Shown here one piece after another: positions 22,171 to 49,400 of a stretch of 64,000 bases of DNA. How positions within the stretch are numbered: position 1 is the stretch's first letter; every line of letters starts with the position of its first letter. This DNA is from Scilla litardierei (lineage: Eukaryota; Streptophyta; Magnoliopsida; Asparagales; Asparagaceae). Where the stretch lies: positions 327,655,938 through 327,719,937 of the forward strand of contig CM061141.1 in NCBI GenBank assembly GCA_030789695.1, read 5' to 3'. Below the pieces are notes generated by a model. It was given only the letters and a program-made list of their open reading frames with translations, searched no databases and had not been told where the DNA came from. A program made the translations under genes and the position numbers.

Positions 22171-22903
22171 TATTGACGGGTAAATTCCGCCCACAATAAG
22201 AAGGATTCTGACGATGGCGTCTTTGGTGATGTGGCGCTCCGTCGTCGACTGAAGAGTGGGACCCGAGGAGAGGGGGTCCCGGGTCAGAGCGAGCTAAGTC
22301 CGAGCTGTTGGGGTGCAGCTCGAGCTAACTCTGAGATGTATCCGTAGGTCTGTAATACAGAAAGATTGTCATGGGGTCGGATTTGGGTCCCGACCTAAAT
22401 CCCTTCTGATGCTTAAGTCGGTGGATGACTAAGAAGGAGCTCGGGAGAGCTCGGTCCGACCTAAAGGGAAGTCATTTGATCACTGTCTTGTTAAGCTAAG
22501 GAGGAAGAATTATAAAGTGGAAAACAGATATCTGAGTGTCAGAGTACCTGAATTTTTTGTATGTCTGGAGATATTGCCTCATGCCTTGTCGTCATTGAGA
22601 CTATTTATTGGTGATGGTTACTCTTGAGTGATGTTAGCAAATAACGGTCTTGACCTTATGACGGCATGACTGTCCCTAAATAGAGCATAACAGCCCATTT
22701 ACTCCACCATTACTAACCAACTCATTATTAATTGATCTCTTAATACTCGGTAGCTTAACGAGAGGATGAGCTGTTGCTTTTGATCGGGTAAGCGGTTAAC
22801 CGCTCATGCGGGCTGTTGGGCTAAGGTGATGTTTTTGTATTGGGCATATTTATTCGAACGAAATACATTTTTCCGTCATGTGGGCCGGCCCAATGTAGTA
22901 ACG
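22171..22903 (-). repeat. Element I LTR (left copy, 3' LTR)
   Basis: 733 bp, matched to 28195-28933 along its length with many substitutions and small indels. The terminal TG has become TA at 22171. Confidence 0.85.
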
Positions 22904-23134
22904 ATGGCCCTATCTCTCTAGCTCAGATGAGGCGATAGTTGAGATCGGGTGATGTGACGTCTTATTAATTGGGCATGACAGTCGAGACGTGAGTTTTGAT
23001 TTTTTTCCGCCAAGTCCACATTCCTTTGATTTGGTCGTTGTATTGGTACGAGGCTCAGGGCGTTAGTATTCTTGGATGTCGACGTGTGCCTCCCATCGAA
23101 TGGTTGAGCTTGATCAAAGAGAGACGACTTCTAT

Positions 23135-23142
23135 TATAAGTA
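23135..23142 (+). promoter_or_regulatory. Putative TATA box of the element I antisense gene
   Basis: TATAAGTA lies 128 bases upstream of the ATG at 23263, followed by a plausible CT-rich leader. This spacing suits a TATA box plus a leader of about 100 bases. A comparable motif precedes the antisense gene of element II. Confidence 0.45.
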
Positions 23143-23262
23143 GATAAATGAGGGAGAAATGGATGAACTTTCCTGCTTGTGCTCTCAGAAAGAAACCATT
23201 CCCCTTTCTTGTATTTTCATTCTCGTTGTTTGATCTCGTTGCGGTTTGAGAATATATTGTCT

Positions 23263-25400
23263 ATGGCTTCTTCATCAATGTCCGAGACTGTTGAGATGTG
23301 GGAAGAGATTGAAAGAGCGCATGTCGCCGCTACCTAGTTCCCTCGCCTGGAGGATTCTCTTCGTTTTGATGAGACACAAGGGGTCGCCCAACCTTCGGAG
23401 TTGGAACATGTTGTAGATAAGGGGAATGCCTTGGCTCTTGTACCCATTGACTCTAAATCTCCAATTTTACGGGCTGGTGAAGATAAGCCTCTCGTGCCTG
23501 ATGAGATCATAAGTTTGGTCTCTGAGGCGCCCGCCGAAGCGCTTCGAAAAATTTAAGATGAATATCTCCGACCTCCATATCAGGTTCGGAGCCCTCAAAA
23601 CAACGAGGGGGTATGTTTCCCTGGTAAATGTGAGGTCGGGTATTTGCTAAGGCCTTTCATCATTCCATTCTTTCATACACCAAGTCTTGAATTCCATGGG
23701 GCTTTCTCTTTGTCAATTGATGCCAAACTTAGTTGGTTGTCTGGTCGGCTCCGTTGTGCTTTGGATGCTGAATGGAGTAGAGCCGACCTTGGATTTGTTT
23801 AATTAGTTCTTTCAGGTGAAAATCACCATGTCTGGCGTGTGGTATTACATAACCGCCAGAAGGATGAGACACCTAATAAAAGACCTTCCCAGCTCTAACC
23901 GTGGGTGGAATGAATATTTTGTTTTTGTGACTTTTCCAGGTGATGTGACCTTTCTCACTTATTGGGGATGACATAGTCTTGTGGCTAACGAAGAAGTACC
24001 CATCTATGAGGAAGAGAACGCATCTGCACAACCGGATAGCCGCAAGTCAGTGACAAATTTGTTGTCCACTGAAATGTTGTTGAAAACCGTTTGGGCGAAA
24101 GGTAAGATCGATCCTTGGGTCTTGTGTCCACAATTGTGTTTCCTTAATCCCATTTCTTTTGTAGACATGGTCGGAGAGGAGTATCAGTCTGATCCTGAGC
24201 TACGAGATGCCTTTTGTGCCTCTCTTCGGACGGCTAAAGGAAGCTCATCACCTCGACCAGTGACATGTCCGGAGCGAAGCTCGATTAAGATCGTCGGGAG
24301 CTCATCCCAAGTAGCCCGAGACGTTCCTGAGAATGCTAAGGGTTAAAAAAAGAGAATCTGCACCTTGGTCGAGGCTGAAAAGTCAAAGAAAAGAAGAGTT
24401 GAGGTGAGGTCGCTATCCCGAGCTCAACTCTTCCAAACATTGACGTGGCTGAGGCCCAGGTGGTGGTCTCTGATTTTTCTCAAGCTCTGACCCATGCCGC
24501 ACCTTCAAGTGAGTCAACACCACCTCCTGAATCGGGCGATTATGAGGATACTTGGCTATGTGGAGGTCTCCATCCTTCGGAGTCGTTGGTTGATGGGATT
24601 CCTATCGAATTCAGGTCGATCTTGTTGGCGGATAAATACCTCAGGCCCCTCCAGAATGTCTCGAGGATAGACTCCACAGGTTTACTTTTCCCGTGGGGAA
24701 GGGGGAGTCAACCTTCCTAAATTGCGAAGTTGCCTCCTGGCTAGTTGAGAACTCCATCCTTCCCCGAGATCGGGCTATCTTACGAAAAGTCGACTATGAG
24801 AGGCTGACCAGCTTCATGGTCTGGCATAGTCACCAGGTCGGTATCTTCCTTTCCTCCTTGATGGTGCGGAGTACCAGATCTAATTTCTCCTTTATCTTGC
24901 GATATGCAGATGTCCTCAGTAGCTGTGGAACTGTGACATTGATCATTGGTAGTGGCCACCTTTGAAGCGAGCTTAGCTTGGAAGCAAAGACTGATGGCCA
25001 CCGCTGAGAGGGCGGCTGACCATGCGAAGGCCAAGTTGCACAAATCGTCTCAACAAGTCACCGGGCTTACTTCTCGAGTTGAATAACTAGATATTCAAGA
25101 GCTGGCCATGGAGAGGATTGTTGCTGAGGATGAGATTGCCCTCAGGAAAACTTGTCGAGGGACAATTGCTTAGGGGGAGAAAAAATTGAAGTTGGAGGAA
25201 GCCGATCTCCGAGCTCAAATTACTAAGCTGGAGGAAGTCGATTCTTCAAAGGTTGTCGTCGAGGCTATAGAAAAATGTAACGAGACTCTCGGTGTCGGGA
25301 TTATTGACGTGTTCAAGGTAGGCTTTTCGAGATGTAAGCAAGAGATCAATCACAAGTACCCCCAATTCTGGGGTTCACTTTGAACAGCTGAAGTTAATGC
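23263..25400 (+). pseudogene. Element I antisense ORF (putative gypsy-type transposon family), degraded
   Basis: Starts ATG at 23263 with MASSSMSETV. It is broken by in-frame stops (for example near 23334 and 23554) and frame changes, but remnants are continuous: CEVGYLLRPFIIPFFHTPSL near 23630, corresponding to the conserved FP-x-HPF block of this family, an acidic middle with SFVDMVGEEYQSDPELRDAF near 24157, and a C-terminal Lys/Glu/Ala-rich coiled-coil-like region (ITKLEEVDSSKVVVEAIEKC near 25219). It runs opposite to gag of the same element. Its partner in element II begins with the same MASSS and has the same order of parts. Molecular function is unknown; such genes occur as extra antisense ORFs in Tat-lineage retrotransposons. 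Confidence 0.65.
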
Positions 25401-25554
25401 CCGATGAAGAGCCCAACGAAGAGCAAGATACTACCCCTGGCCAAGGAAGCTGCAGCGATGTCCTCTGGGAGTCGATCATCAGGCACCTCTGCGTCATGAA
25501 TTTATCCCTCGGATTTTTCTATTGTATATAGGCTCCGTCTTTTCGCATTCTGTA

Positions 25555-25560
25555 AATAAA
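25555..25560 (+). terminator. AATAAA signal after the element I antisense gene
   Basis: AATAAA about 155 bases beyond the antisense frame, in a T-rich context (TTGTATATAGG upstream). It faces the signal at 26310-26319 on the other strand across the tandem-repeat array. Confidence 0.5.
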
Positions 25561-25749
25561 ATTGATTTTACCAAAAGAAATGAAAGCTTAACTTGTCATG
25601 GATTACCTTGTAGATAAGGAACTATCATGTTGTACGTCGACTGCATGCCCCCTCAAGGGCTCGGGCCCGTGCATTGGTAGGATGTAGAGTGTGAGCTGTT
25701 GAATAACGACTTATGACCTTGATCAGATAGCCTCATATCCCCATATAAT

Positions 25750-26190
25750 AGAGTAGAGAGTTCGTCTCGCGATCGTATAGCTAGCTCGGCCAGCGAGGGA
25801 GTGGTCCCTCGATCGTATAGCTAGCTCGACCAGCGAGGGTGTCAATAGGTCGTCCCTAATCGTTTAGCTAGCTCGGCCAGCGAGGGTGTGGCCACCAATC
25901 GTATAGCCGAGCAGCCAACTAGGGTGCTGATAGGTCATCCCCGATCGTATAACTAGCTAGGCCCGATAGGCGGTGGCCCTCCGATCGTATAGCCGAGTTG
26001 CCCGCGAGGGTGTCAATAGGTCGTCCCTGATCGTATAGCTAGTTAGGCCTATGAGAGTGGTCCTTCCGATCGTATAGCCGTGCAGCCCGTGAGGGTGCTG
26101 GTAAGTCATCCTCGATCAAATAGCTAGCTCGGTCCGCGAGGGAGTGGCCCCCGATCGCATTACCGAGCTGCCGGTAAGAGTGCTGATATA
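25750..26190. repeat. Element I tandem-repeat array (CGATCGTATAGCTAGCTCGG units)
   Basis: About nine imperfect units of 40-55 bp, each containing GATCGTATAGC(TAGCTCGG) and ending in (C)GAGGGTGT or GAGTGG, with a higher-order alternation of GTGGCCC and GTCAATAGGTCGTC units. It lies between the ends of gag and the antisense gene. Confidence 0.85.
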
Positions 26191-26309
26191 ATGCGTAGAT
26201 CTGTTGTACTTGAACGGAAGCAGAAAAGATCGATCAAATGCTCTTCTCAGAGTACATTTGTCGTATGCTCATTGGTTCGGCATAGCATATATATTGAAAA
26301 CGATACTTG

Positions 26310-26319
26310 TTTATTTATT
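26310..26319 (-). terminator. AATAAATAAA signal after element I gag
   Basis: On the minus strand AATAAATAAA follows the gag remnant by about 190 bases, just before the tandem array. Confidence 0.5.
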
Positions 26320-26499
26320 CATCTAAAGGAAAACATATGAACAATGGAAATCAACACATGGATTTATTCGGAGTACTTGGGATGTTTTTGATGAAGTTCG
26401 GTGTATTGCCCAGCTCGTCCCGAGCTCTTGACTAGCAAGATCACCCCAGCTGGTCATTAAATAACACATGTAACTGGGGAGCTCGTTATGACTCCTTTG

Positions 26500-28160
26500 C
26501 CTCAATCCTTGCCCTTTGAGGTACCCTCCTCTGGCCTTGTTTCTGGGGCGTCGACAAATTTCTTCAGATGGCCACGTTTAATCAGGTCTCGATGACCTTC
26601 TATTAGCAGTCTCAGTATTGTGGCCATTGTCTTGATGGTATCTGCAAAATTTAAGGTTGTCCCTCTTCTCATATTTGCTTTTCTGCTTAGGAGGAGGTCA
26701 GTCAAAGTATCACTCGTCCTTTGTGTAAGCTAATACTTCAGCCTTGGAGGCGTTTAGTTTGGTGAAAGTCTCGTCGGCATCTTGTGACGGACCTCGGGGG
26801 CTTCTTTCTCATCGCCGTCGATCTCTGGACTCTCAACAAGATCCGTCTTGAGACCGAGCTTCCTTTCTTGCTTCAGCGGGGGGTCTGGCTGCGCTCTTGT
26901 TACGGACGGCCAATGCTTCTTCGGCCATCATATATCCTTTTGCCTTAGTAAGGAGATGATCTAAGCTACGAAGTGGTTTATGGTGCGGTGACTTCATTAA
27001 ATCATCGCATCGGATCCCTTTTTGAGCGCAATAATGGTGATGTCGTCATTGCAGCTCTCCACATTCAGCCTTTTTAGATTAAGGAAAGCCCGCATCGTTT
27101 CCCCTTATCTCTGTTTCAGAGTGAACAGATGGTCCGAGCTCCTCTTTCTCCTTCGTCCTGCCATGAATTGGAATTGCTATAAGAAAGCTTGTGCTAAGCT
27201 CTTAAAAGATCCGATGATGCAGTTGTGGTGCCCATTATATCATTCCTTTGCAGCTTTTCGTAGTGTCGTCTGAAAAGCCCGGCAGAGGAGGATGTCATCT
27301 GCCCCTTGTATTTCCATCACGCCCTTGTAATCTTGGACGTGTTCTCGATGATCGTCCGAGCCTTCATATTTATCTAGGTTAGGCATCCTAAACCTGAGTA
27401 GTCGTGGAGATGAGATAATGTTCTTCTTCAACCGGTTATGCTCGTCATTCAAGCTTGAGGATGGAGAATAAGGACGGCACACGCTAGCTCGACATTTGGG
27501 GTTTCGACTGGTTGAGATGCTGGAGGAATCGCCTTCCCTGCCACCCGAACTGTTAGGGGGAGACGACGGCGGAGGTTTGTTCATTGACTCTTCCACTTGT
27601 TGTCGGACTTGGGTTGCCAAGGGGACTCCGGTCCCTTTTGCGACCACTCCTTCCCACTTCATCGTTGTTCTGAACGTGATGGCAGTATCCTTTCCCGTTG
27701 GTTGAGGGTCCTTGGCCTGTGGGCTTAGCGGAGCAGTCAATGCCTTCTTTTTCGACATCTTGATCTCCGTCAGGAGGAACGACGTCAGAATTATGTCAAG
27801 GTGGTTGACGAGGGGAAGTCACAGGGATAATCTACCGCTCAGAGTTCGACTCTTCATTCCTTTGGTTTCAGGTTGCAAGCTGTATCTTCTCATGGCTCAG
27901 TTCTGCACTGATGGGCAGTGGTCCTTTAGTCGATCGGGGTTGCCTGTTCGTCGGTTCTATTACAAAGTTAATGTCTTAATGTTGATATTAACTTCATTTG
28001 AGAATGCTTAAAATTGCTCCAATGTGACCTATTGCGGCTCGGATCCTCCCTGAAAAGAAGAGCTAGGGTCATCATGGAGTATGTGAGTATCTGTCTCCTT
28101 GCAAGCGATTGGCCCCTCGGGCCCTTGGTTGGTGGGGTGAGTCGACATTGTGGAGATGTG
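26500..28160 (-). pseudogene. Element I gag, degraded
   Basis: Open stretches on the minus strand at 28150-28029, 27758-27240 and 26705-26502. The middle one holds the capsid-like start RFRMPNLDKYEGSDDHREHV and ILLCRAFQTTLRKAAKEWY; the last holds the C-terminal block LIKRGHLKKFVDAPE that ends gag of Tat-type elements (the preceding His/Cys words are decayed). Frame changes and stops separate them. Gag forms the particle that packages the RNA; this copy cannot encode an intact one. Confidence 0.75.
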
Positions 28161-28194
28161 GATGTTGATTCCGATTCCTACATACGGCACTAGC

Positions 28195-28933
28195 TGTTGA
28201 CGGGTAAATCCGCCCACAGTAAGAAGGATGCTGATGATGACGCCTTCGGTGACATGTCGCTCCGTCGACCGAAGAGTGGGACCCGAGAAGAGGCGGTCAC
28301 GAGTCGGAGAGAGCTAAGTTCAAGTTGTTGGGGGTGAAGCCCGACCTAACTCCGAGCTGTTTCCTTAGGTCTGCAACACAGAAAGATTGTCGGGGGTCGG
28401 ATCTGGGTCCCGACCCAAATCCTCTCTGATACTTAAGTCAGTGGATGACTAAGGAGCTTAGGGCAGCTAGGTCCCGACATAGATGGGGATCGTTCGATCA
28501 CTGTCTCGTCGAGATAAGGTGGAAGAAATATAAAGTTAAAAATAGATATCTGAACATCAGAGTACCTGAGTATTTTGTATGTCTGGAGAGATTGCCACAT
28601 GTCTTGTCGTCATGGAGACTATTTATAGGTGTGGTTCACTCCTGAGTGTCATTAGCGAATAACGGCCTTGCCTTTATGATGGCATGATTGTCCCTGAAAA
28701 TGAACATAACGGCCGACCATTTACTCCGTCATTACTAACCGACCCATTATTAACTTATCCCTTAATACTCGGGAGCTCAACCGGTGGATGAGCTGTTGCT
28801 TTTGACTGGGTAAGCGGTCAACCACACATGCGGGCCTCTGGGCTGTTGGGCTAAGGTGATGCATTCGTCTTGGGCTTATTAATTCGAATGAAATACATTT
28901 CCCCGTCACATGGGCCGACCTAATATAGTAACA
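28195..28933 (-). repeat. Element I LTR (right copy, 5' LTR)
   Basis: 739 bp, starting TGTTGACGGGTAAATCCGCC on the plus strand and ending TAGTAACA. Fragments related to this LTR occur at 34030-34730 and 59815-60010. Confidence 0.85.
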
Positions 28934-28989
28934 ATAGTATATGTGTATCATAGTCTAACTATGTGTATATGATGCTTGGGCCTAAGCTA

Positions 28990-29300
28990 CCGCTGCACAA
29001 ATTTCCATGTGATGTCTTCTCAAAAACCTCCCCTTCTAGTCACTTTTCCAATGGTCGACACGATCTACACATGCTAGATCCCCAACACCAAAAATCTTGT
29101 GAACATCAAGCCATTTGCTCGTTGATCAGGTCGTTTAAATAATAAAATCATTGCATTTTTAGCAATCTGATCAACAAGCAACGATCATCAGATTGACTAG
29201 ATTTTTGGCGTACTAGGGGTATGGCATGTGTAGCTCCAACTGAGGGAAAAATGTGGGGTGAAATTTTTGAGGTGACTCCGCATGTATATTCGTGTGGTGT
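28990..29300. repeat. Foldback element with arms of about 135 bp
   Basis: The left arm (about 28990-29128) includes CACATGCTAGATCCCCAACA and CCAAAAATCTTGTGAACATC; the right arm (about 29163-29300) includes the complement GATTTTTGGCGTACTAGGGG and TATGGCATGTGTAG. Spacer about 35 bp. Consistent with a non-autonomous inverted-repeat transposon; no protein. Confidence 0.75.
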
Positions 29301-32300
29301 CACTTCATTTGCTGGTTTCTCACGCACATGGAATATATATAAAGCTTTGGATTCAATAGAAATTTGGTGTGTTTGGGTTTTAGAATATGAAGATCAAAAT
29401 GAGCGGTGACAATTATCCAAATTAAATTTGGAGAGTGGACTTTTCGAGCTCGCATATGTCATAACCGCTCATATGTCACATGATACCCATTATGCTCAAT
29501 TTGATATCTATCAACTTCAGTTTATGTTCAACAGAGAATTTTCTATCGAGGTTAGCTCTGCAAAACAAGCAATTTTGATGGTGGACAATCATCTCCAAAT
29601 ATAATTTCATATATTCAGTGTTGCTTATGCAAATCTTATGATTATGTGTCCTTGATAGAAAGTGTTTGATTCGTTGAAACTTTGATTAAACCAAAATTTT
29701 AAAATAATCTAAGGACTTCTAAATATGAGCTAAAATTACAGTTCTCTTCGATCAATGCCAGCATTCCCTAGTCATTGGAAAGAGACATGAAGGTCATGTA
29801 GCAGTATGCATCTTTTTCGATCTTAGATCACTGAACCATGACAATTTTGCAGGAAGGTCTAGTCGCTGTTGTCAGAGGTGCACCTTGGACCGCCACAGGG
29901 ACCAGCAACATTGGCCCTTGTGGCAATGTCCCACAGGGAATGTGGGGTGCATGGGGAAGCAAGGCATGTGCCTTGCTGCGAATTGGGATTCGACCCAAAA
30001 AAAACTAGTTAACATCTAAACCCCCCTCAAATTCCTCGAGGGCTTCCACCAGTGCTGCATTGACAACCTATGTTGGCAGTAACAATCTCTGGCCATGATT
30101 GCAACATGTAAGATTCTGTTTATAATTGACTTGCATTTTAGACAGAGTTTGTCCATCAATGCTGTCTTACGAACTCAATTACCCATGCTGCCTGAAAAAG
30201 GTAGCAGAAAAATAAAAAATGAAGGAATAAGCAAATTGGGCGTGCAGTGCTATGTTGTTTGGTGTATCATGCTTTGTATAGATTATGGGCTGCCCCACTC
30301 GCCACCTGGTGTGTGACAAAGGTGCATATTTCTATCACCTTCCAGTGGTTATACCTTAACTTAGAAGGGGATGCAGAAAATCGGTACATTGACGTTAAAC
30401 ATTTTTCACTGGTTAGTCAGATTGGACCCTACCATTTTTGGGATCCTGCCAAGGATTTGGTTCCATAATGTCATCACCTTGAAATTATGATAACTCTATG
30501 AAGATATACTATTACTACCTTTCAGAGTGGGTGAGGCTTAAGTTCAGTTTTTGTGTTCCGGGGATCAATTTAAGTATTGGACCTCTGGCAAGAAAAAACG
30601 TTAGATTCTGTTTTCTTTCCACTATATTACTTGCTAACTTTTTTCTTCTGACTATCTTTACCATCAAAACTTGAAATGTGGTGGCCTTGTGCATCAAATT
30701 CTTCTTCTCATTGTTTGCATGCAACACTGCCATGCAAAAGACAGTATCCCGAATACAAATATGAAAATATAATCCTTGATAACCTTCTCATGTTATTGAA
30801 AGCATTAAAAGGTCAAATTCATGTGGTTTATTTCAATGATTCATTGATTTCTTTGCTCATCAGAAAGTTATTTAATATGTCATGAGAAAATTATTTTGAA
30901 TCTTGCAGTGAAATCGCCCAACACAGTATTAGCTTGACAAATTTGTTTTCATGAATGAAACCCACAGATTTAGTAATGGAAATGGATAAAAGAGAACTCA
31001 AGAAGTCGCCGTAGTTTTTGTGAAAAACTTGTGATGGTAATAACAACTTTATAAATCTACTATGGTTGTTAGCAAATGGAATGGGGTGAAGATTTAACGA
31101 ACTCACTCCATTGTTGACACACTAGAAAACTTGTTGCAGTTGCTATTTCATCGATCTTGTATAGGTTTTAATGGAGTTACGCGTTTTATATATGCGCTAA
31201 TCGTATAGAAACTGGGCTACCGTTTATTCAAGTTTTATGATGACATTCTAACTAATCCTATCATACGCTTCCAAATCGTCTACACTATGCGGAAATTGGT
31301 CTCAACAAGTTGCATGTATGGTAGTGCTGAAAATAATGGGTGCACGAGGTGCGTAGGGTTATTGGCATTTTGAGGCTTTTGATGACTAATAAGTTGCTAG
31401 GACGTGAATGTAAATGATGTGAAGCTTTCTTATTTGGGAACCATGTAACACTTTGAAGTGCTACCTCGTCCAATCTCGTACTGTCATTATGCCATCAAGG
31501 TGGTATTTTGTGTCTAGAAATTTGTGTGTTAATAATATATTTGAAGATAAGAAGCTTAAATGAATGAAATTCTGGTTCATTGCATTTATAGGGTCATAGC
31601 GGTCAACCCAGAGAGGGGGTGTGCAATGAGGTGGAGCGCGTAGCTGTTATAAGAGTAGTACTTATTTCCATTTCATAAGTGAATTAATTTTGGTTTATCT
31701 GCAAGAACAAATGGTAGTGTTTCTCCGAATTTTAGACCAAATGGTGGATCCTAATGATGGCTAGCCTTGGGTGCTTGCTTTCCTCTTTGATATTATGCAT
31801 GTTCTCTAAAGTTATCGTGCACGGTATTTAGAGGGACAATAGTACATACTTTTGATTTTTGTAAGATCCCTTGTTGATGGTTAAGGGTATATCGACGCTG
31901 ATATGCAATCTGCTGCACTACCTTTTTATTGTCCATGGTATCCTATCATATTAGAATGTCTCATTTCCTCCACCGGACTGCTTTCGTGTGCAGCTTCTAT
32001 GAGCCTACGGCATCTTCTCTCCAAACATGTCAGCATGTCAACTAAACATATCAGCATGTCAACTTGGGACTTGCTCCATCTCAGAGAGTTTGCTTGCTGT
32101 ATGTGTTGCTCATTGTCGCACTTCCATCTATTTCACGTTCTGAACTCCCCGTTATTTTTTCTCTGCATTCATCCATCTTGCAGTATCATTTGCTCTACTG
32201 TTTCCCCCCAGGTGTACGTCTATGCATTGTTATCTAAAAACTCAGCTGGTCTTGTAGCCGTCTTATTTTGTTGGCACCATTGCAGTGGATTATTAGCACA

Positions 32301-33560: not shown

Positions 33561-33569
33561 AAGCTGCAT

Positions 33570-33609
33570 GAGAGAGAGAGAGAGAGAGAGAGGGAGGGAG
33601 AGGGAGGGC
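33570..33609 (+). repeat. (GA)n followed by GGGA/GAGG microsatellite
   Basis: About 12 GA units running into AGGGAGGGAGAGGGAGGG. Confidence 0.9.
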
Positions 33610-33763
33610 AATAACTGAGGCAGCCAGTGACCTGGCATGATGAATAAAAAACATGGCTACAGTAACCGAAGCTCATTGGAGACCACACAGTTTTCTAACA
33701 GTATAAAAACAAGACTAGCAGGCTAGCAGCCAACAAACTCACCTCTGTTGCAGATGAGGCAAT

Positions 33764-37439: not shown

Positions 37440-40400
37440 ATGCATGGGGTCAGTCTTTTAATTCCCTCTATTTATCTATTTTTTGGGTGTCTCTCGTGGA
37501 GTTTGAGACGAGGAAGAAGAAAAATCTTTTCTTAATTTAGTATATTATTATTTCCATTGCTTGAAGGAATGGATATTTAGATGATGTGTGATCATTTAGC
37601 TTGACGTTATGGTTTATTTTGATTTTATCTGCCTACGAGCATCTATGAAGAAACAACTATCATGCTGTCCTTCTATTTCAAGTGTGATATTCAAAAAAAA
37701 AAAAGGCAATTTCATTATGATGGGTTTCCTTCTATTGAATCATAGAGATATTTTCGTCATATGGACACTATTGGAAGTTTGTCAATTAAATTGCTTTTCT
37801 GTATAAAGAAAAAGTTTAGATATTTACATTGAGCATCTCCAACCACACTGAGTGTTTGTGTCTCCAACCACACTCTTGCTATAGTAACACTCCAAATTTG
37901 GAGTGTTGGGAGAGAAATGGAGAGACACTCCAAAACACTATTGGAGGAGAGAGACGGAGATGGAAAGGGTTAGAGAGAGTGTGGACATATATTGGAAGGG
38001 GGGGGGGGAGAGATAGATAGTGGAGATTTATGGAGGGTGCTTGTTGAATTATTAGGCCGACATTCGAGATAACTCGACCGACAGAAGACTAAGGCCCACT
38101 GGGCTCACAAGAGAGGCCCGATACCGACTCAGTCAAAGCTCATTGGTCAGTCGACCATTGCATTTACCTCACTCGAACGTGGGAGTAAATGCGGGCTCGC
38201 AATTCGCAGGAACGTGTGCAACACTTACTCCTATTAAAGGGAAAAATCGTGGCCCCCCATTATGGGTAGTCGTTATCTTCCCAACGTCACTGAAAGGACC
38301 CGGAATGCCTATAAATAGGAGGAAGGGTCCCATCTTGGAGGCACGAGGTCTAATACATAGAACTCTACGTTTCTCAGCTGATATTTCTTACTCTATAGAG
38401 CTAGCGATGACATATCTGAGGCGAATCTCCGTTGGTCGATCTCAGCTGCTCTTAACTTCATCTCATACTTAAGTTCATATAATAACTTAAGCATCGGAGG
38501 AGATTTGGGTCAGAATCCAGATCCGACTCACCTAACGTGTCACTGTGGTGCAGATCGACGAGTCTCCATCTAACGTCGAAGGTCGTTGCCAAGCTTCCCA
38601 GTCTCGAACGATCGACGCATCGCTACCCGAAGATCGATCGAACACATTATCATCATCTACATCCATCACTCGATCCGGATTCTTCCAAACTCGGGTCCCA
38701 CTTCACTCGCTGACGAGGCTCCAACTCAGTCTGAGGGACCTACGTCAGCCTGACAACTATACCAGTCAAATTTGGCCTTAACAGTTTGCCGCCGTCCGTG
38801 GAAAACGTTAACCAGCTTGACATCCCAAAGCAATCCAAAAGTTATGACAGCTGGACCCAGTAACGTCGGACCGGTCGAAAGTCTGAAGGAGAAGTAGAAA
38901 TCGAACTGCGTCCTGGTGGAGGACGCCACAGACTCCACATCGCCATCACGACCATCAAAGGCCACGAAGGAGCCTGAGGTGACCCGAAAGGAATTCACCC
39001 AGTTCATCGAGCAGGTCGACAAGAGTCTCGGTGTTTTGACGACCTTGATATGCCAAAACATGGGGAATCCATCGCTCTCGAACGAGCCGTTGCCAAACCT
39101 GGCACTGACACCAACCAAAGGCACGACCTTCATCAGAGATCAGGGGGATCTAAGAGCAGATTAAGTAGAGATCGGCCCACACAATGCAACCCCCGGTCTC
39201 ACCAATACGACAGAATGGGGGTCGACAAACGGGCCTTCGTTCTCCAGGGGGAACACACACCCTCCAATTATTGGAAAGCAACCCACAATATCTTGGATCA
39301 GGTAATGTACGGGGCTCCCCCGGTTATAACCATCAACCCTGCAGGTTGATTCGGAAGGAGAGAGAAGATCCCAAATCGATCTTTAGGAGCCAATTACGTA
39401 CAAACCGGAGAGGGAGGATCTCTACTAGTCCGATCCGCACTCCGACGAACCACACTGAGGGAAAATATCATTTCCGCTCATCCTCTTCCCAAGTTCAAAC
39501 TCCCTGTCTTACCAGCTTATGATGGCAGAGGTGATCCGTGGTCACACATTCATAAAAATCTGAAAGTAATGTTGCTTCACGGAACTGCCGAGCCATACCG
39601 TTGTAGAGCTTTCTACGCTACCCTGTTCAAGAGGGCAGAAAGCTGGTATGAAGGGCTACCTCACGGCTGCATTGAGTCGTTCGATGAATTGGCGGAAATT
39701 TTCTGCAAGCAATTCGTCGCGGGACGACTGTAACGCCCTGCTCCCTAGGATACCAGGGAAGTACGAATTCGTCCCAGGTGATCCCAGAGCAGCGAGGCGT
39801 TACATTTGACGGCCCATGCAGGTCATCTCACTGCTGCTGTTTAAAGGTAGTGTGTGTTGTGTTCCGAGGGTAGCTGAGTCGTAAGGTGGGTAGACGTCTA
39901 GCCTTAGGGTAGAGTCCTCAGGTTAGACAGTCCGAGGACAGACTGTATTTTAAGGTGGGTAGAATGTAATAGCCTAGTTGCCATGTATGGCAGGGTATGT
40001 TATTTTGTGTGATATATAGTATAATTATGCTTGTATAGCATGTAGTGTGTATGGAGGATACGTAGTGTGCATAGTAAGTAACTTATTGGTTGGCTATATG
40101 TGTACCTATATGGATGAATAGTATGTGTATTTGTGTGCTACATAGTGTATATACCCTTGCATACTTGTTTGTCTTTATATGGTGTGATAGTGTGTATAGT
40201 ATTATTATAGTGTGTATATTATTTAGCCTACTTGGTTGCCTATTGATTGCTTATATGGTGACCGTGGATTTATAAGAATGTGTTGCTTGATTTTATGAAT
40301 GGGTGATGTTATGGATGCCTATGAGGGTGATTATGTGTTTGTAATATATATATATATGAGAATAATGCTATCATACGCCATATGAGAGCCTCTCTCATAC

Positions 40401-43400
40401 GCCCTCTCACATAAAGCACCAAAGTACAACCAAGTACATGCCAATGTGGGCTTGTACTTGGGTGCTTTATGTGAGAGGGCGTATGAGAGAAGCTCTCATA
40501 TGGCGTATGATAGCCATTATTCTATATGTGTGTGTGTGTGTAGTCTGTGTTTCTTTTATTGTCCCTCTGGATGTCTGATGTCTCTGTGTTGTTTATTAGT
40601 TTCGGGAATATTACAGGTACTACCCAGCAGTGCGCAGTGGTCATGCTTTGAGTTTTCTTTTTGTATTTCCCTTCGTAACACTCGTTGCGCTGGATCACCT
40701 GGGACGGATTCGTACTTCTCGGGTATCCTAGGGAGCGGGGCATTACAACGACGTCCTAAGAAGAAGTCCTCCCACCTCTTCTCGCTCAAACAGAATGAGA
40801 ATGAGTCGATTTGAGCCTTCTCCAGAGATTTAACGACGAGTGGCTCGATGTAGAAGAGACGCTGGACGTGACTGTCATAGCGGTGCTCACTCAGGCGGTC
40901 TGGAACAAACACCTCTGGAGGGCCCTCCACCAGTTCCCCCTTAACACCGTCGTAGAAATGCTCAACATAACAGATCGGTTCACTGTCTTCGAGGAAGCAT
41001 AGGAACCAACCGGGATTGGTACGAAAGGCACTCCCTCCCGCCGCGGAGACACGAGGCGACCGACTCCGGGGACCCCTCGACAGGAGTCTCGAGACAAGAG
41101 ACCCAAAGAATGGAGCCCTTGAGGCAAGGAGCACCCTGCCTACGTAAAACCGAGCGCTCTAAGACGGAGGTCCTTGCTTACGCTACACGAGAGAAGCTGG
41201 TCCAAAAGACAGCAAAGAAGGGCACATGAGAAGAGGGACGACCTCAAATTCTGCAAGTACCACAACGACTATGACACGATACCAACAACTGTTGGACTCT
41301 CAAAAAGAGATCGATGCACTGGTCAAGCGAGGACACTCCAAAAATCCAGCCAACGATCAACCTAGCAAAGAGGGATCCTCGAAGCAGAAGGGCAATAAGA
41401 CGGGGTTACCTGTCACCAAGGTGATCGATTAGCAAGCCATCTGGGCTCGGGGTCAAATAAAGAGGCGTTGGACAACAACAGCTCCGACGAAGTTCGGAAA
41501 CACATGTATGCCTTTTGTTTTTGTCACTTCTTTCAATAAAGCATGTCTCTTTCATCAAATAAAGTTTTTGCTTCCTTAAAACCTTCATGAATTCTAAAAA
41601 ACCATCCCATTAAAACTCTCCTCGAAAAGGATCCGATCATCGGGAAGCCTGGGTAAAACTGAATTCATGTAGAAATCCATGCGAGTGATTTCTACAAGAG
41701 GCGTCAGCCGTAAGTCGAAGGAGACACCACTTCGCTATTGAACGACTCTCCCAAGAGGCGTCAGCCGTAAGTCGAAGGGGCCATCCCTTCGCTACTGAAC
41801 GACTCTCCCAAGAGGCGTCAGCCGTAAGTCGAAGGGGCCATCCATTCGCTACTGAACGACTCTTCTAAGAGGCGTTAGCCGTAAGTCGAAGGGGCCACCC
41901 CTTCGCTACTGAACGACTCTTCCAAAATGTCGCAGCCGTCAGTCGAAGGGGCCACCCCTTCTCTATTGAACGACTCTCCCAAGAGGCGTCAGCCGTAAGT
42001 TGAATGTGCCATCCCTTCGCTACTGAACGACTTTCCCAAGATGCGCCAGCCGTAAGTCGAAGGGGCCATCCCTTCGCTACTGAACGACTCTCCCAAGAGG
42101 TGTCAGCCGTAAGTCGAAAGGGCCACCCCTTCGCTACTGAACGACTCTCCCAAGAGGCGTCAGCCGTTAGTCGAAGGGGCCACCCCTTCGCTACTGAACG
42201 ACTCTCCTATAGAGGCATCGGTCGTAAGTCGAAGGGGCCACCCCTTCGCTACTGAACGACTCTCCCAAGACGTCGTCAGCCGTAAGTCGAAGGGGCCACC
42301 CCTTCGCTACTGAATGACTCTCCTAAAGAGGCGGCATCCGTAAGTCGAAGGGGCCACCTCTTCGCTACTGAACGACTCTCCTAAAGAGGCGTCACCCGTA
42401 AGTCGAAGAGGTGGCCCTTCGCTACTGGATGACTTTCCTAAAGAGGCATCGGCCGTAAGTCGAAGGGGCCATCACTTCGCTACTGGACGATTCTCCCAGA
42501 ACGTCTTCTGTCGTAAGTCGAAGGGCCACCCCTTCGCTGCTGAACAACTCGCCCTAGAACATCGTCAACCATAAGTCGAAAGGCCACCCCTTCGCTACTG
42601 GACGACTCTCCCATAACGTCGTTAGCCGTAAGTCGAAGGGCCACCACTTCGCTGCTGAACGACTCTACCTAAAATGCCGTCAGCCGTAAGTCGAAGGGCA
42701 ACTCCTTCGTTACTGGACGACTCTCCTAAAACGTCGTCAGCCATAAGTCGAAGGGCTACCCCTTCGATACTGGACGACTCTTCCAGAACGTCGTCAGCCG
42801 TAAGTCGAAGGGCCATCCCTTCGCTGCTGAACGACTCGACCTAAAATGTGGTCAGTCGTAAGTCGAAGGGCCACCCCACCGCTACTGGACAACTCTCTCA
42901 GAACGTCGTCAGCCATAAGTCGAAGGGCAACCCCTTCGCTACTGAACGACTCGCCCTAAAACGTCGTCAGCCGTAAGTCGAAAGGGCCACCCATTTGCCA
43001 CTGGACGACTCTCCTAAAACGTCGTCAGCCGTAAGTCGAAGGGCCACCCCTTCGCTACTGGACGACTCTCCTAAAACGTCGTCAGCCGTAAGTCGGAGGG
43101 CCACCCCTTTGCTGCTGAACGACTCATCCTAAAACGTCGTCAGCCATAAGTCGAAGGGCCACAACTTCGCTACTGGACGACTCTCCTAAAATGTCGTCAG
43201 CCGTAAGTCGAAGGGCCACCCCTTCGCTACTGGATGACTCTCCCAGAACGTCGTCAGCTATAAGTCGAAGGGCCACCCCTTCGCCGCTGAACGAATCACC
43301 CCAGAACGTCGTCAGCCATAAGTCGAAGGGCCACCCCTTCGCTACTGAACGACTCTCCCAAAACGTTGTCAGTCATAAGTCGAAGGGCCGTCCCTTCGTC

Positions 43401-46400
43401 ACTGAACGACTCCCGTTTCGTCAGCCGTGAGCCGAGGAAATCACTCCCTCACCAAGGAACGCAATGATCAACTTCTAAGTATGGTTCGATGGTTTATCCT
43501 CAATTATCCGGAAGCAGCGCCTAACCCATCGAAAGGGGCCATCAAGCATTACGGCCACCACAAGACGTAAGCGGCAGCAAACAAAGAGATGCAATGAAAA
43601 ACAAGGCTATACATGCCAATTCTTCTGGCACTTCCTATTGCAAAACATTGTTTTCGTTTACATTTACATCACCCCTATACATTCAAAAATTTCTAAAGCA
43701 GGCGTAAACAAGAGCGTCGAGATCCTATAGCGGCTGGCTAGGCCCTTGGTCTCCATCCAGCACGGTCGTGGACTCTGGGTCCCCATAGCGTCCGCTCCTG
43801 CTTCGTCGCCGGCCATGGTGGCACCTCGTCAACAAGAGCAGCCTCCTCCGTGCCTTGGCTCGATTCGTCATCGCCTTGGCTTGATTCGTCATCGCCAAGG
43901 TCTGGAAACACCACCGGGATCTGATTGATCGCAGCGGTGAGCTCAGGGAATCGTTTCTTCATCTCCAGTCGACATCGCTCGTAGCATTACTTGTATAGCT
44001 CGTCGAAGTCAGGAAACGTATCATCGAACTTTTGAACCGCCCTCTCCACTATAACCTCGGCTTCGACTCTCTCCTCCAACAGAGCGTCCTCCGCTCGCTC
44101 TCTTAAGGCGGTTTGTTTAGCCTCCCTCCTATGAGACTCGTGTAACTCTTTCTTGAATTTCTGAAGGCGATTCAATCTCGTCTCGCAGAGAAGGCTGAGT
44201 CTAGTTAGCTCAACTTGAGATTTTTCCACGGCCGACCTAATGGCCTCCAGGATGACACCATGATTGGCCACCACTGGAGCGCGACGCCGCACCGCCGCGG
44301 TGGCCACGAGAGCATGCAAACAACACACGATGATCAACATCCATGCTGGTATCACCTACGAGGGAGACCGGAGCAATAATTGCCTGGACATTGGCATGAA
44401 CAGCCATCGACACAAGCCGCTCATAGTCGACCCTCTCCACGACAGCCATGTCTCGTGGAAGGGTCGCATTCTCGGCAATGCGGGATGCAGTCCCGCAATC
44501 GAGGAGGGCGGAATCTTCTTGCCTTATCGAAAACTCCATTTGGACGAGCTCCTCTGCGGTGCAGTCAAATGGGTCCTGGCGAGATCGACTCTCCAGCAAC
44601 ATCGACCTGAATTCATCGGGGATGTCTTCAGACAATGCGACAGGAGGGAACAGACCACCCAAGGCTAGGAGTCCTCGTGCACAAGAAGCTCCGGGGGACA
44701 AGTCTTCCCCGAATGTCCCTCTTGAGGGGTACCCCTCCCCGGCCGGGAGACCTGCTCCGTAGCCGCATTCGACCCAGACGGCTTCGAGTCGCTGAGAACG
44801 AGTCGCCGTCTCTTTTTATTCCCTTCAAGCGCAACTACTTCAAATTCGGAGGCATGCTTTTCCGTCTTCTTCTGATGGCGGGCCACCTGAGCAACCCTCT
44901 CAACAACCATGGGTCGATCCTCCGACGGTTGGGCCACACTTTCCACCACAGTCGGCACCCGAGGAGACAACATGCTCACCTCCGACTCTCTGATGGAAGT
45001 CTCGACTGCTTCCTTCAATGCATGATCCACCCGATAATCAACGTCGGCCATGCCTGCAAAAACAACAAACGAGTTAAGTCGAGGACCAAAGGTTGAACGG
45101 TTGGTAGGCACGATCGAACTAACCTTTCACCCACACGGTCCGACGCAACATGTCGTCAAACCACATACACTTTGCCGACCTTATATTCTCTGACAGACTC
45201 GTCAGTGTGTCGACGGCTTTTTTCTCCTCGCTAGTCAGCTGCTTATATTCGGAGGGGCCCAAGTCAGGGGCACCCCAACCGGTGCAGAATCTTGCCTCTC
45301 CTTGAAAAACCACAAACACAAACTCGTCTTTCCATTTGGGATTGGAGGTGGGAAGGTCTTCTAGCAGCTTCTTGCCTCGACGGGCCATTATCGTATACCA
45401 GCCTGGGGTCTTGAGGGGAGGGATCGAGAAAAATGATTGAACAGACTCAGAGAGGGTTCAATCCCCTTCATCACACACAGAGCTATGAAGCCCATCAGCA
45501 TGCCAATGGCGTTCGGCATCAACTGACAGAGGGAAATGTTCAGGGTACACAAGAAGTACCTTATGAAAGGGTGCATGGGGAATCGAAGGCCTCGTTCGAA
45601 GGCTGTGACGTTTACCCCCGCTTCCCGATCGCAGGGACAATGAACCCTCACATCCTTCCCAGGTACCCGGATTTGGTAATTGAGACGGACATAACTTCTC
45701 TGAAGCTCTGGGATATTGCCCGTCTTGACGTTGGACTTCAGATTCGCAAGCAAACCCGGCTCCAGAACCCATTCCTTATTCTTCTGCATGACCGTGACCA
45801 AGCTCCTTTCAGAGGCAGGGATGGAGGACGAAGCCATTACTTTCGGGAGAAGGAAAATCTAAATCAAGAGAATGAAGACGATACCTTCGCGTTCTACCGC
45901 TGGAGCCGTCCTATATAAGCATGGCGACAACCACATGATGAAACACGCGTCGAAGATCCGAAAGCTCTAAGCGTCTTGGATTTCGAAACGACAAATCATT
46001 TGAATCGACGAAGCGGGTGTTTTGGCGCCTGAAACTCAAGTGCAATTTTCTCGACTGACGTGTCCCATTAATGCGATGTAACGTCGCTTGACTTCAGCGG
46101 GTAGACCCTTCAAGGTCGTGCGACGAGAGCCATTGTTGAATCATTGGCCAGCATTCGAGATAACTCGACCGACAGATGACTAAGGCCCACGGGGCCCACA
46201 AGAGAGGCCCAATACCGACTCCCACAAGAGAGGCCCGATACCGACTCAGTCAAAGCCCATTGGTCAGTCGACCGTTGCATTCACCTCACTCGAACGTGGG
46301 AGTAAAGGCGGGCTCGCAATTCGCGGGAATGTGTACAACATTTACTCCTATTAAAGGGAAAAGATTGTGGCCCCATTATGGGTGGTCCTTATCTCTCCAA

Positions 46401-49400
46401 CGTCACTGAAAGGACCCGTAATGCCTATAAATAGGAGGAAGGGTCACATCTTCAAGGTACAAGGTCTAAGACATAAAACTCTACGTTTCTCAGCTGATAT
46501 TTCTTACTTCATAGAGCCAGCGACGACAGATCTGATGCGAACTTTCGTGGGTCGATCTCAGCTGCTCCTACCTTTCTCTCATCTTTAAGTTTCCATACTA
46601 ACTTAAGCATTGGAGGGGATTTGGGTCGGAACCCAGATCCGACCCCCCTAACGTGTCACTGTGGTGCAGATCGACGAGTCTCCATCCAACGTCGAAGGTC
46701 GTTACTGGGCTGTCCAGCCTCGAACGATCGACGCATCAGCTACCCGAAGGTCGATCGAGCACATCATCATCTTCTACATCCATCACTCTACCTAGGTTCT
46801 TTCAACTTCGGGTCCCACTTCTCTCGCTGATGAGGCCCAACTCAGCCTGAGGGACCTACGTCAGCCTGACAACTGTACCGATCAATTTTGGCCTTAACAG
46901 TACCCATTGGAGCTTTCTCCAATTCTCACCATCCATAATGAGAATATTCCTTTAATATTTCAATCCAACACTCCATTTATAGATTGTTGGGTTGGAGATG
47001 CTATAATGCTTTGGGGAATTTTTTTTCTCTGTTAGGATTGTTGCTTGAGGACATATTAGATTGTTGACTATCTATTCCTGTATATTGTCTGATTTGATGT
47101 AATCTACCACTGTTACAAGCTTGAACTTTACAACAATTGTGGTGTATCTTGCAAATCTTTTACCGTCCAATTTTAGAGTGATATAATTTGTTGTAGTGCA
47201 AACCAATACCATCTATCCATCTTTTGTGCCGTGATGCAAACATGTAGGAAATTACAAAAAAAGAGGGGAAATTTTGGAGCACCGTCACAGCTTCCAATTC
47301 TAGAGAGATACAAGTACTCCAATATTAGATATGCATTCCTTAAAATCACCCTTCCTTGATGACATATTGTTATATCAGTGCAAGTTGAGTGGTCTAATGA
47401 GTTATTAGTTATACAAAATTGCAATGCATAGCGCATGGAACACATCTCACCTTCTGTAAAATGCACAATCACACATTCAAGTGATCTATTATTCTGAAGC
47501 ATTGAAAATGTGAGAAGATATCTCTATCCAAGCAAGCAAGTAGCACTGCATTAACATAGCTTCAACCCTGCCTCCCATACCATGATGCCTTCTGAAGGCA
47601 CGGTTTACTGAGAAAGGAAGATCCTTAATGGAAATTGAAATGTCAGTATAGACCAAGTCAATAGTTAGCATATGATGACTATTTTTTTCTTTTGTTGTTA
47701 ACAAAAAGCAAATATTGGATGATTTTAGTTCCTCTGGAATTAGGAAATTGATGCTAATCGTCGATATGGTAAAACTGTTTTGTAACAGAACAGAGGTTGT
47801 CTTGGCTGCTGTACAAAGCCAACTCCAATAACTGCAGTTGACGAGCCTTCAAAGGGTTTAAAAATCCAAGGCCGGACAGTGAAAAAACCCAGCATATCTG
47901 AGGACTTTTGGAGTACAAGCACATATGAGATGGATAACAGTGGAGTTCAATCCCAACGAAGTGTTTCTTCAATGAGCACATCAACACAAACGCTTGACCA
48001 CCATGGAGCTGGAAGCACTAGCAGCCCTTGTGAATTTGTGAATCATGGTAACTGCAAATTTAGTTGGACACTCTTATTATTGGATTTGTATATAACTCAA
48101 ATTTAAATGTCTTGATTATTGTTTTCATGCATTATTTACTCCCATTTAAGTTTTGGAAATGTCAGCATCATATAATTGAATTTTTGTACCTAACATTTAA
48201 AGGCAAACATGTAGCACTAGTAGCAAATATATATAGTCCGGTGATCTAGCAGGCTAAATGTATTGAAAGCTATTATTTCAATAATATCTTGTTTGCTGAG
48301 ATATCAGTTTTTATGTAGAAATGGTCTATTGATATGTTCCTTCAACAAACTTATTAGATGCCATGCATGTGACAGGCCAGTTATACTAATGGAGGAAACA
48401 CTTAATAAAGAAAAATTATGTTATGTGGACTTAATAAGATAACTGTTGAGCATTGTAATTAAAATCTTTTGTGGTGAGATTTATATTTACCTCTTAAATA
48501 GGACATGCTTTTCTTCTAACTAAATAAGTTGAAAACATCCCAAACAACAGCAATGGCTTTACCTTAAATCTTTTGTCAGGTAAGTTGTGTCGATTGTCAT
48601 ATATTGTCATACTTAATTTTTCCTAGCTATTCATTTTTCTTCAACATGGATTTTCCAACTGATGGTTGGCTAGAGGGTGCATATGAAGAGTTTAGTGGCA
48701 AAGAGTTCAACATAATATGGAGAATCAAATATCTTCTGAATTGGATCTTCTTATCCAAGATTTAGTTTACTATTAGTGGAAGTAGGCCATAACAAATATG
48801 GAAATAAACAAGTTGATATGCTATATTTTTTCTCATTTCCTTGCCACGATGATTGGCAAATGCAAGAACAAAAAGTTTGATAGTCATCTGATTTTATGCT
48901 TAAACTATATGTGTAGGTTTTCTTCTTTGGACCCAGATCAGGCAGCAGTGGGTTGGAAACAAAAACCCTGAAATTCGGTCGCAACAGCTTCGAGAACCGA
49001 GATTAAGGTATGCCTTAGTAATCTGCACTGGATATCTGAATCAAAAGTGCTATAGTGTTAGTCATGTGCCATGCAGGCGAAAAGAGAAACTATCTACCTA
49101 TATAAACAATTGCTTTTATATTTTATTCAGATTATTTTGTATGATTGATATTTTATTTTGATATGTTTGTTTTTTAAGTGAACTGGCATCCTATTTTAAT
49201 ATGAATGTATTTCTATGTTGTTTAATGGTTCCTTTTTAAGAAAACTGGAATTCTACTTTGATATTAATTTCTATTTTACATTTTTTATTTGTATATACAT
49301 CATATATTAAATAATTACAAATATAACCATTGATAGGAAAGAAAAAAAGGGGGACATGATTTCTATCAATATGCTTTTAAGAGTAGTTACACACATGTAT

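What the first reader, a model, noticed from the sequence alone, without database searches (positions are those of the whole stretch)
22171..46899. Two pol-less LTR elements with the same convergent gag / repeat array / antisense gene layout
Seen: elements I (22171-28933) and II (38042-46899) each have LTRs, gag in sense, no RT/RH/IN motif, a tandem array, then a gene on the opposite strand starting MASSS. Known: Tat-lineage Ty3/gypsy elements can carry an antisense extra ORF, and gag-only non-autonomous LTR elements exist. Inference: these are a distinct non-autonomous class that lost pol but kept gag and the antisense gene, implying the antisense protein is useful for mobilisation. The two families differ in LTRs and in the repeat monomer, so the layout is shared beyond one copy.
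Basis: partly seen in the sequence, partly recalled or inferred. Interest (0 to 1): 0.8.

Follow-up and report, generated by a model that had tools for sequence, protein, structure and literature searches.

The report
Pol-less retrotransposons keeping an antisense gene
Two old plant jumping-gene copies have lost the copying enzymes but keep their shell-protein gene and a backwards-running gene, and the same genome holds matching partners that kept enzyme genes and lost the shell gene, which suggests a division of labour.

Summary
Element I (sense minus) and II (sense plus) are LTR elements with decayed gag, a tandem array and a convergent antisense gene; only 332 and 265 bp separate gag from array, so pol is absent. 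II's antisense gene matches Pfam Transposase_28 (TRP28), the mark of the Retand (Tat) lineage; I's is its homologue.

In the window's own 3.68-Gb genome pol is missing at one junction per family: 36 of 40 scored copies (I), 40 of 40 (II). A third family (III) keeps gag-protease, lacks RT, RNase H and integrase (40 of 40), and is recent; its genes look constrained: dN/dS 0.22-0.29 (gag-protease), 0.23-0.56 (TRP28).

The complement exists too: elements with I-type or II-type LTRs and primer site in which protease follows a short leader and gag is gone (34 of 40 and 40 of 40 scored copies); one lies in this window (61.6-63.5 kb).

Best reading: gag-plus-TRP28 families mobilised in trans by RT and integrase of gag-less, pol-bearing relatives. 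Semi-autonomous families are known (Athila, Sabrina, Quinta, Fatima); this Retand version is a variant that an RT-anchored survey sees only by half. TRP28's role is not shown.

The parts
22171..22903 (-). Element I, 3' LTR (element sense is minus)
   Evidence: Aligned to the other LTR, K2P 0.187 over 725 sites
28195..28933 (-). Element I, 5' LTR
   Evidence: the pair is flanked by target-site repeat ATAGT (22166-22170 and 28934-28938)
26505..27818 (-). Element I gag, broken; longest frames 27243-27818 and 26505-26729
   Evidence: Homologous to gag of II (tblastn E 5e-15 and 1e-9) and of family III; no Pfam match of its own
26173..26504 (-). Element I junction between gag end and array (332 bp), where pol would lie
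   Evidence: 36 of 40 scored genome copies, this one included, cross it; alignable in L020, L024, L030
25770..26172 (-). Element I tandem array, unit about 85/171 bp
   Evidence: Tandem Repeats Finder
23263..25500 (+). Element I antisense gene (starts MASSS; 3' end approximate), decayed; candidate GT..AG introns 24102-24164 and 24837-24909
   Evidence: Homologous to II's antisense gene in several blocks (E 4.5e-18, 5.5e-14, 1.9e-13); splice-like sites
38042..38783 (+). Element II, 5' LTR
   Evidence: K2P 0.126 over 739 sites
46134..46899 (+). Element II, 3' LTR
38898..41429 (+). Element II gag, decayed and interrupted by the DNA transposon
   Evidence: Weak Pfam Retrotrans_gag (E 0.018, below its cut-off); homologous to gag of I, III and L037
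39729..40747 (.). DNA transposon inserted in gag of II
   Evidence: Ends and repeat read; absent in L037, which aligns on either side of it
41430..41694 (+). Element II junction between gag end and array (265 bp)
   Evidence: 40 of 40 scored genome copies, this one included, cross it, 85-100% identical
41695..43412 (+). Element II tandem array, 57-bp unit, about 30 copies
   Evidence: hairpin-forming unit CGAAGGGG-CCA-CCCCTTCG
43741..45840 (-). Element II antisense gene (starts MASSS), TRP28 domain in frame 45391-45858, frameshifted; candidate intron 45054-45123
   Evidence: Pfam PF04195 E 9.8e-13, 48.6 bits against cut-off 26.2; splice-like sites
61644..62227 (+). Complementary gag-less element: II-type LTR (start approximate)
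   Evidence: 72% to LTR II over 466 columns (LTR II 284-742), 83% to the LTR beside protease at L012
62228..63507 (+). Complementary gag-less element: primer-site region and leader, then protease (from 62356) and, without RT, RNase H and a faint integrase match; decayed
   Evidence: 84% to the leader-protease stretch of L012; tblastn; LTR-leader-protease junction crossed by 40 of 40 scored copies

Best explanation
Elements I and II are old copies of two pol-less ('semi-autonomous') Retand-type (Tat, Ty3/gypsy) families. Each family descends from an ancestor that lost pol but kept LTRs, primer site, gag, tandem array and the antisense TRP28 gene, then multiplied with reverse transcriptase and integrase made by other Retand elements. 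The likely suppliers are gag-less, pol-bearing elements with the same LTR type and primer site, which in turn would need Gag made by elements like I and II. The TRP28 gene is most likely expressed from its own antisense transcript as a nuclear, possibly DNA-binding accessory protein. Shown: anatomy, family-wide absence of pol, recent spread of family III, constraint on gag-protease and TRP28 in III, gag-less pol-bearing elements with I- and II-type LTRs. Inferred: mutual supply in trans, splicing, what TRP28 does.
For: Layout and TSD; TRP28; I and II homologous in gag, antisense gene and LTR core. Pol missing at one junction per family: 36/40, 40/40, 40/40 scored copies, the query's own copy included; first-look pools 816, 2445, 3825. 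II's second copy L037 is collinear at about 82% without pol. Family III: 953-aa gag-protease frame, array, 504-aa TRP28 frame, no RT/RH/INT; 48 of 48 scored gag-protease hits have frames of 922-1038 aa, 20 without an internal stop; 28 of 48 have a listed TRP28 hit within 20 kb and all 28 are convergent, 26 at 3.8-6.4 kb; the largest of those 26 gaps is a 13.7-copy array and one of the two larger gaps a nested insert. dN/dS: gag-protease 0.22-0.29 (3 pairs), TRP28 0.23-0.56 (11 pairs, plus a partial one at 0.36); TRP28 frame pN/pS 0.26-0.30 against 0.84-2.54 in four other frames. Complement: L032 (protease, RT) and L034 (protease) start 1 bp after I-type LTRs that are 75% identical to LTR I over nearly its whole length with primer site and an about 110-nt leader shared with gag-bearing copies; gag-less junction in 34 of 40 scored copies, II-type in 40 of 40. 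Of 41 LTR-I rows, 4 abut a gag-less start and 6 (two of them in this window) lie within 4.5 kb of a pol-less junction. Pol frames reach 1,548 aa; 5 of 85 scored exceed 1,300 aa without a stop.
Against: Mobilisation in trans was not observed. Junction queries favour junction-bearing copies, so complete gag-plus-pol relatives would rank lower; I did not show that none exist. The II-type partner shares only the 3' 60% or so of LTR II (72%), and in the window it lacks RT as well. In I and II the genes are broken, so constraint is shown only in III, for which no gag-less partner was looked for; the TRP28 copies compared came from the best-scoring hits and mostly long frames, which favours low dN/dS, and all pairs share L038. 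Frame -2 also gives 0.35-0.44; I take it as an echo of third-position change. 4 of 40 family-I rows stop about 23 bp short of the gag end; L018, covering one of them, holds other DNA there, not pol.
Confidence: 0.85

Rival explanations
1. Coincidental decay: the two copies were ordinary full-length elements that each lost pol by deletion after insertion.
For: Both copies are old (LTR K2P 0.187 and 0.126) and broken in every gene.
Against: The same gag-to-array junction recurs in 36 of 40 and 40 of 40 scored copies; L020, L024, L030 and L037 share it.
Confidence: 0.03
2. Passive hitch-hiking: pol-less elements move as pure parasites of complete autonomous Retand elements; gag and TRP28 remain only because a pol deletion left them.
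For: I and II copies are decayed; non-autonomous elements without any coding capacity exist in barley (Suria, Sabrina_B; PMC5738225, passages seen).
Against: In III, gag-protease dN/dS is 0.22-0.29 and TRP28 0.23-0.56, while a non-coding spacer gives pN/pS 1.12 (one comparison). Pol-bearing relatives with matching LTRs seen here lack gag.
Confidence: 0.12
3. What is selected is the antisense RNA or the array rather than the TRP28 protein, for example double-stranded RNA control or a structured packaging or polyadenylation signal.
For: Six folded array units, several of them versions of II's, form a GGGGCCACTCCCC-type hairpin (z -1.95 to -3.78) and most unit pairs are related; antisense RNA effects are proposed in PMC7264820.
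Against: Constraint is codon-shaped in the TRP28 frame. No compensatory change was found within arrays, but only 11 units were recovered.
Confidence: 0.15

Closest known systems
Retand lineage of Ty3/gypsy (Tat); Vicient 2025, PMC11963269 (abstract to conclusions read in three parts)
   Same: Antisense TRP28 gene near the 3' LTR (97% of clusters), arrays in about half, long 3' region; 10 of 63 clusters lack domains: seven lack GAG, two lack GAG and protease, and Table 1 lists two with GAG and protease but without RNase H and integrase.
   Different: Its survey started from intact RT domains, so elements without RT could not appear; here pol is wholly (I, II) or all but the protease (III) absent while gag and TRP28 remain. 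The gag-less half resembles its GAG-lacking clusters.
Semi-autonomous RLG_Sabrina_SA, RLG_WHAM and RLG_Quinta of Triticeae (PMC9744471, PMC11302176, PMC5738225; passages seen)
   Same: Large families coding Gag or Gag-protease without RT or integrase, proposed to supply Gag to partners.
   Different: Their proposed partners (Wilma, Cereba) code GAG, RT and INT together; no antisense TRP28 gene in the passages seen; Sabrina and WHAM are tied to a BAGY2-like (Athila) ancestor, Quinta to Cereba.
Nonautonomous and autonomous Fatima of wheat (PMC3129301; passages seen)
   Same: Nonautonomous form has gag and protease plus a second ORF; autonomous form has protease, RT, RNase H, integrase and only weak similarity to gag; LTRs 91% identical. 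Possibly the same kind of pair.
   Different: Family and orientation of the second ORFs are not stated in the passages seen, so sameness of kind is untested.
Pol-less Athila families of Arabidopsis (PMC2410132; passages seen)
   Same: Whole families without pol, some with intact gag and an extra gene under purifying selection.
   Different: The extra gene is env-like and the lineage is another.

Membership tests
LTR retrotransposon | Two LTRs, TG..CA ends, 5-bp target repeat, primer site | tested here: met
   LTR pairs in both. I: perfect TSD; one LTR keeps TG..CA, the other reads TA..CG. II: TG..CA, TSD 3 of 5. Degenerate primer sites beside the LTRs; III and the gag-less copies have clearer ones
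Retand (Tat) lineage | RT phylogeny | not testable with these tools
   I, II and III have no RT; no reference RT tree was built for L032 or L035
Retand (Tat) lineage | Antisense TRP28 gene between pol and 3' LTR | tested here: met
   II: PF04195 E 9.8e-13; III: E 1.8e-16; I: no Pfam hit of its own, by homology to II
Retand (Tat) lineage | Tandem array in the 3' region (about half of members) | tested here: met
Retand (Tat) lineage | A second, RVT_3-type RNase H in pol (recalled feature of Tat) | tested here: inconclusive
   RVT_3 found in the pol-bearing relative L035; not testable in pol-less elements
Semi-autonomous (gag-bearing, pol-less) LTR element | Gag retained, RT, RNase H and integrase absent across the family | tested here: met
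Semi-autonomous (gag-bearing, pol-less) LTR element | Partner that codes RT and integrase, with matching LTR and primer site | tested here: inconclusive
   I-type: LTR (75%), primer site and leader match in gag-less L032 with protease and RT; RNase H and integrase were not found in L032. II-type: partial LTR match.
Athila | ATHILA ORF-1 (PF03078) | tested here: not met
   No match in the 23 sense frames of I and II scanned at E 0.1

The most novel reading that the evidence does not exclude
In this genome Retand retrotransposons work as a split system with reciprocal halves: one set makes Gag (or Gag-protease) and TRP28 without RT and integrase, the other makes protease, RT and integrase without Gag, and both share LTR type, primer site and leader so that either RNA can use the pooled proteins. 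TRP28 would be an accessory protein that stays with the Gag half.
Probability: 0.5. Interest if true: 0.7.

Novelty: new variant of a known kind. Interest (0 to 1): 0.6.

Why it matters
RT-anchored surveys miss the gag half, although first-look pools here run to hundreds or thousands per family. The two halves are a natural deletion experiment: with pol stripped away at least twice, what stays is Gag (or Gag-protease) and the antisense TRP28 gene, which makes the unknown role of TRP28 testable. The gene also has candidate introns at matching positions in I, II, III and L039; such introns can persist because the genomic RNA is the opposite strand. The word 'intron' occurs in neither of the two papers on these antisense genes that I searched for it.

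Tried and rejected
Coincidental decay was rejected. Pol hidden in frameshifted pieces was rejected by space and by tblastn with L035 pol pieces. Hairpin covariation inside arrays gave nothing usable: 11 units recovered, no compensatory change. In one search the pair II-L035 was not significant (p 0.12). Intron 1 as a plain intron in III is doubtful: its 63 bp are in frame, gap-free and vary mostly at third positions, so it may be translated at times; in II it is 70 bp with a stop and would have to be spliced. Pairs of L038 with L040, L045, L049 and L050 gave dN/dS 0.71-0.79 and 0.34-0.56 by nucleotide alignment; I attribute the difference to frame changes near the 3' end. The spacer control printed three equal values because leading gaps made the frames identical, so I count it as one. 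A search of the big protein set with the family-III TRP28 protein found nothing, nor did the PDB. Structure prediction was not used: proteins from genome-fetch loci are not on that tool's list.

Paper searches: (open-licence PMC only). In their listings and in the papers opened I saw no description of a Retand family without RT that keeps gag and antisense TRP28; subscription papers, such as the original Grande, RIRE2 and Retand reports, were not seen.
Full report
What is in the window. Element I spans 22171-28933 and reads on the minus strand; element II spans 38042-46899 and reads on the plus strand. LTR ends, target repeats and primer-site remnants were located. Element I has a perfect 5-bp target repeat (ATAGT); element II has 3 of 5 matching bases. 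LTR divergence is 0.187 (I) and 0.126 (II), so both are old; I give no dates because the plant and its rate are unknown. In each element's own direction the order is 5' LTR, gag, tandem array, then a gene on the other strand, 3' LTR. Only 332 bp (I) and 265 bp (II) separate the last gag frame from the array, while pol needs several kilobases (general knowledge). I scanned 23 of the 28 sense-strand frames of 70 residues or more with Pfam and found no pol domain up to E 0.1. A tblastn with pieces of a Retand pol found nothing in either element at E 1e-3, although it found two other places in the window.

What the genes are. The antisense gene of II matches Pfam Transposase_28 (PF04195, TRP28) at E 9.8e-13. 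The antisense gene of I has no such match of its own but aligns with II's in several blocks (36-52% identity, E down to 4.5e-18), as does gag. The LTRs share a 46-51-bp core at 87-88% identity. The tandem units are related: I and II share GGGCCAC[CT]CC[CT]TCGCT (p 0.024 against 500 shuffles), and a unit at L025 aligns with both (p 0.002 each, the floor of the test); II against a further unit at L035 is not significant (p 0.12). All six sequences folded have a hairpin around that core (z -1.95 to -3.78); three of them are versions of II's unit.

Is lack of pol a property of the families? The window's own genome (3.68 Gb, 7266 contigs, unnamed) was searched. LTR I gave 41 rows from 2384 first-look candidates; I fetched the flanks of 10 loci, two of them LTR pairs. 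Three hold gag (L020, L024, L030), each followed 288-310 bp later by a period-85 array, and none of these three holds pol. A query from the gag end to the array edge matched across the junction in 36 of 40 scored copies for I and 40 of 40 for II, the window's own copy counted. The four other rows for I, two places on contig C3 and two on C4783 that look like duplicates, stop about 23 bp short of the gag end; L018, which covers one of them, has non-pol DNA there. A second copy of II, L037, is collinear at about 82%, has the same junction, and lacks the 1,019-bp DNA transposon that splits gag in the window. Bias: junction queries favour junction-bearing copies and only the best 40 are scored. 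The LTR-anchored sample lacks that bias but is small.

A third family. TRP28 gave 150 scored matches from 22,280 first-look candidates. One of them, fetched as L038, lies in an element with a 953-aa gag-protease frame, a period-212 array and a 504-aa TRP28 frame, and with no RT, RNase H or integrase. Its junction is crossed by 40 of 40 scored copies at 94-100% identity, from 3825 first-look candidates. The gag-protease protein gave 48 scored matches with frames of 922-1038 aa, 20 of them without an internal stop; none is long enough for a gag-pol fusion, but two-ORF elements exist in monocots (PMC11963269), so the junction data carry the point. 28 of the 48 have a listed TRP28 match within 20 kb; all 28 are convergent, 26 at 3.8-6.4 kb and two at 11.3 and 13.3 kb. 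The largest of the 26 gaps (L051) is filled by a 13.7-copy array and the 11.3-kb gap (L052) by a nested insertion; neither holds pol. The 13.3-kb gap was not examined. So pol was cut at different points, after gag in I and II and after protease in III. Whether I and II share one loss is open: their junctions align only in part.

The other half. Among the same LTR-anchored loci, L032 carries protease and RT, and L034 protease, starting directly after an I-type LTR that is 75% identical to LTR I over nearly its whole length. A clear primer site follows the LTR, then a leader of about 110 nt that aligns with the leader of gag-bearing copies (I and L024) and afterwards protease in place of gag. 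So of the 10 loci, 3 have gag without pol, 2 have protease or RT without gag, and none has both; the other five show neither for that LTR, though one (L035) holds a separate pol-bearing element, beside which gag pieces of I and II found nothing better than E 0.05. A query over the gag-less junction of L032 matched across it in 34 of 40 scored copies, from 1875 first-look candidates; two more match in two adjacent pieces. Of the 41 LTR-I rows, four abut such a gag-less start and six, two of them the window's own LTRs, lie within 4.5 kb of a pol-less junction. For type II, L012 and the window itself (61.6-63.5 kb) hold a related LTR (69-72% to the 3' part of LTR II), primer site, leader and protease without gag; that junction is crossed by 40 of 40 scored copies at 86-100%, from 4887 first-look candidates. 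The window copy is decayed and joins protease to RNase H without RT. RNase H and integrase were not found in L032. A pol search with the L035 piece gave 85 scored matches from 72,959 first-look candidates, frames up to 1,548 aa, five over 1,300 aa without a stop; none of the 85 reaches the size of a full gag-pol fusion, but two-ORF elements are not excluded.

Constraint. Between copies of III, gag-protease dN/dS is 0.29, 0.29 and 0.22 (dS 0.10-0.15). TRP28 exons 1-2 give 0.23-0.56 over 11 pairs, 0.23-0.26 for the five pairs of dS above 0.13; a partial L051 comparison gives 0.36 and exon 3 gives 0.43. In other frames of five of the TRP28 alignments pN/pS is 0.84-2.54, except frame -2 (0.35-0.44), and a spacer gives 1.12. 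All pairs share L038 and the copies came from the best TRP28 hits, mostly with long frames, so this is evidence, not an estimate of selection strength. L042 and L043 belong to copies whose pol-less junction is listed; for L041 and L045 the gap to gag (5.3 and 6.2 kb) is within the range explained by arrays; the others were not checked.

Gene model. The antisense genes of I, II, L037, L038 and L039 have a GT..AG stretch with a pyrimidine tract at the same place. In II it is 70 bp with a stop, so a complete protein would need splicing. In I and III it is 63 bp, in frame and open, and in III it varies mainly at third positions, so it may be read through. A second GT..AG stretch is clear in III (86 bp, more diverged than the exons, with gaps) and in I, and mutated in II. 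These are predictions; no transcript was available.

How it most likely works. Genomic RNA of a pol-less copy is made from its LTR, packaged in Gag, reverse-transcribed and integrated by enzymes of a pol-bearing relative, as proposed for Cereba/Quinta and the Wilma/Sabrina/WHAM complex of wheat (passages in PMC11302176 and PMC9744471). Here the relatives with matching LTRs lack gag, so supply may be mutual. TRP28 is predicted to bind DNA (PMC11963269), and the antisense product of maize Grande is nuclear and has its own promoter (as reported in PMC7264820; original not seen). Its retention through at least two losses of pol, with constraint in III, suggests a contribution that partners do not fully supply.

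Novelty. Retand with antisense TRP28 and arrays is known, GAG-lacking Retand clusters are known (PMC11963269), and gag-only or gag-protease-only families are known in other lineages; the Fatima pair may be the same kind. What I did not find in the eight paper searches listed is a Retand family without RT that keeps gag and TRP28, or the pairing of such families with gag-less ones of the same LTR type. I rate it a new variant of a known kind.

Noticed in passing
window 39729-40747: A 1,019-bp DNA transposon (26-bp TIR, 5-bp target repeat ACGAC) inside gag of II, itself holding a 63-bp inverted repeat, 97% complementary (40367-40429 / 40452-40514).
   Followed up: partly
window 51444-53199: RT and integrase matches (minus strand, 25-35% to Retand pol), probably an LTR element of another lineage.
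   Followed up: no
window 7022-7073: A run of 52 G, unusual for plant DNA and possibly an assembly artefact.
   Followed up: no
window 20583-20882 and 21249-21548: Two 300-bp direct copies 666 bp apart, 100% identical by the repeat finder.
   Followed up: no
L025:8611-8954, L035:7759-8304: Array units resembling those of I and (L025) II, all with a GGGG..CCCC hairpin whose outer pairs differ between families; possible structural conservation of the arrays.
   Followed up: partly
L052:2102-5003: A 32-copy array of 90-bp units lying in an 1,108-aa open frame that begins like a III-type gag; a nested insert in a III copy.
   Followed up: no
G000 contigs C3 and C4783: Two LTR-I places and two junction places occur at matching spacing on both contigs, so C4783 looks like an unplaced duplicate of part of C3.
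   Followed up: no
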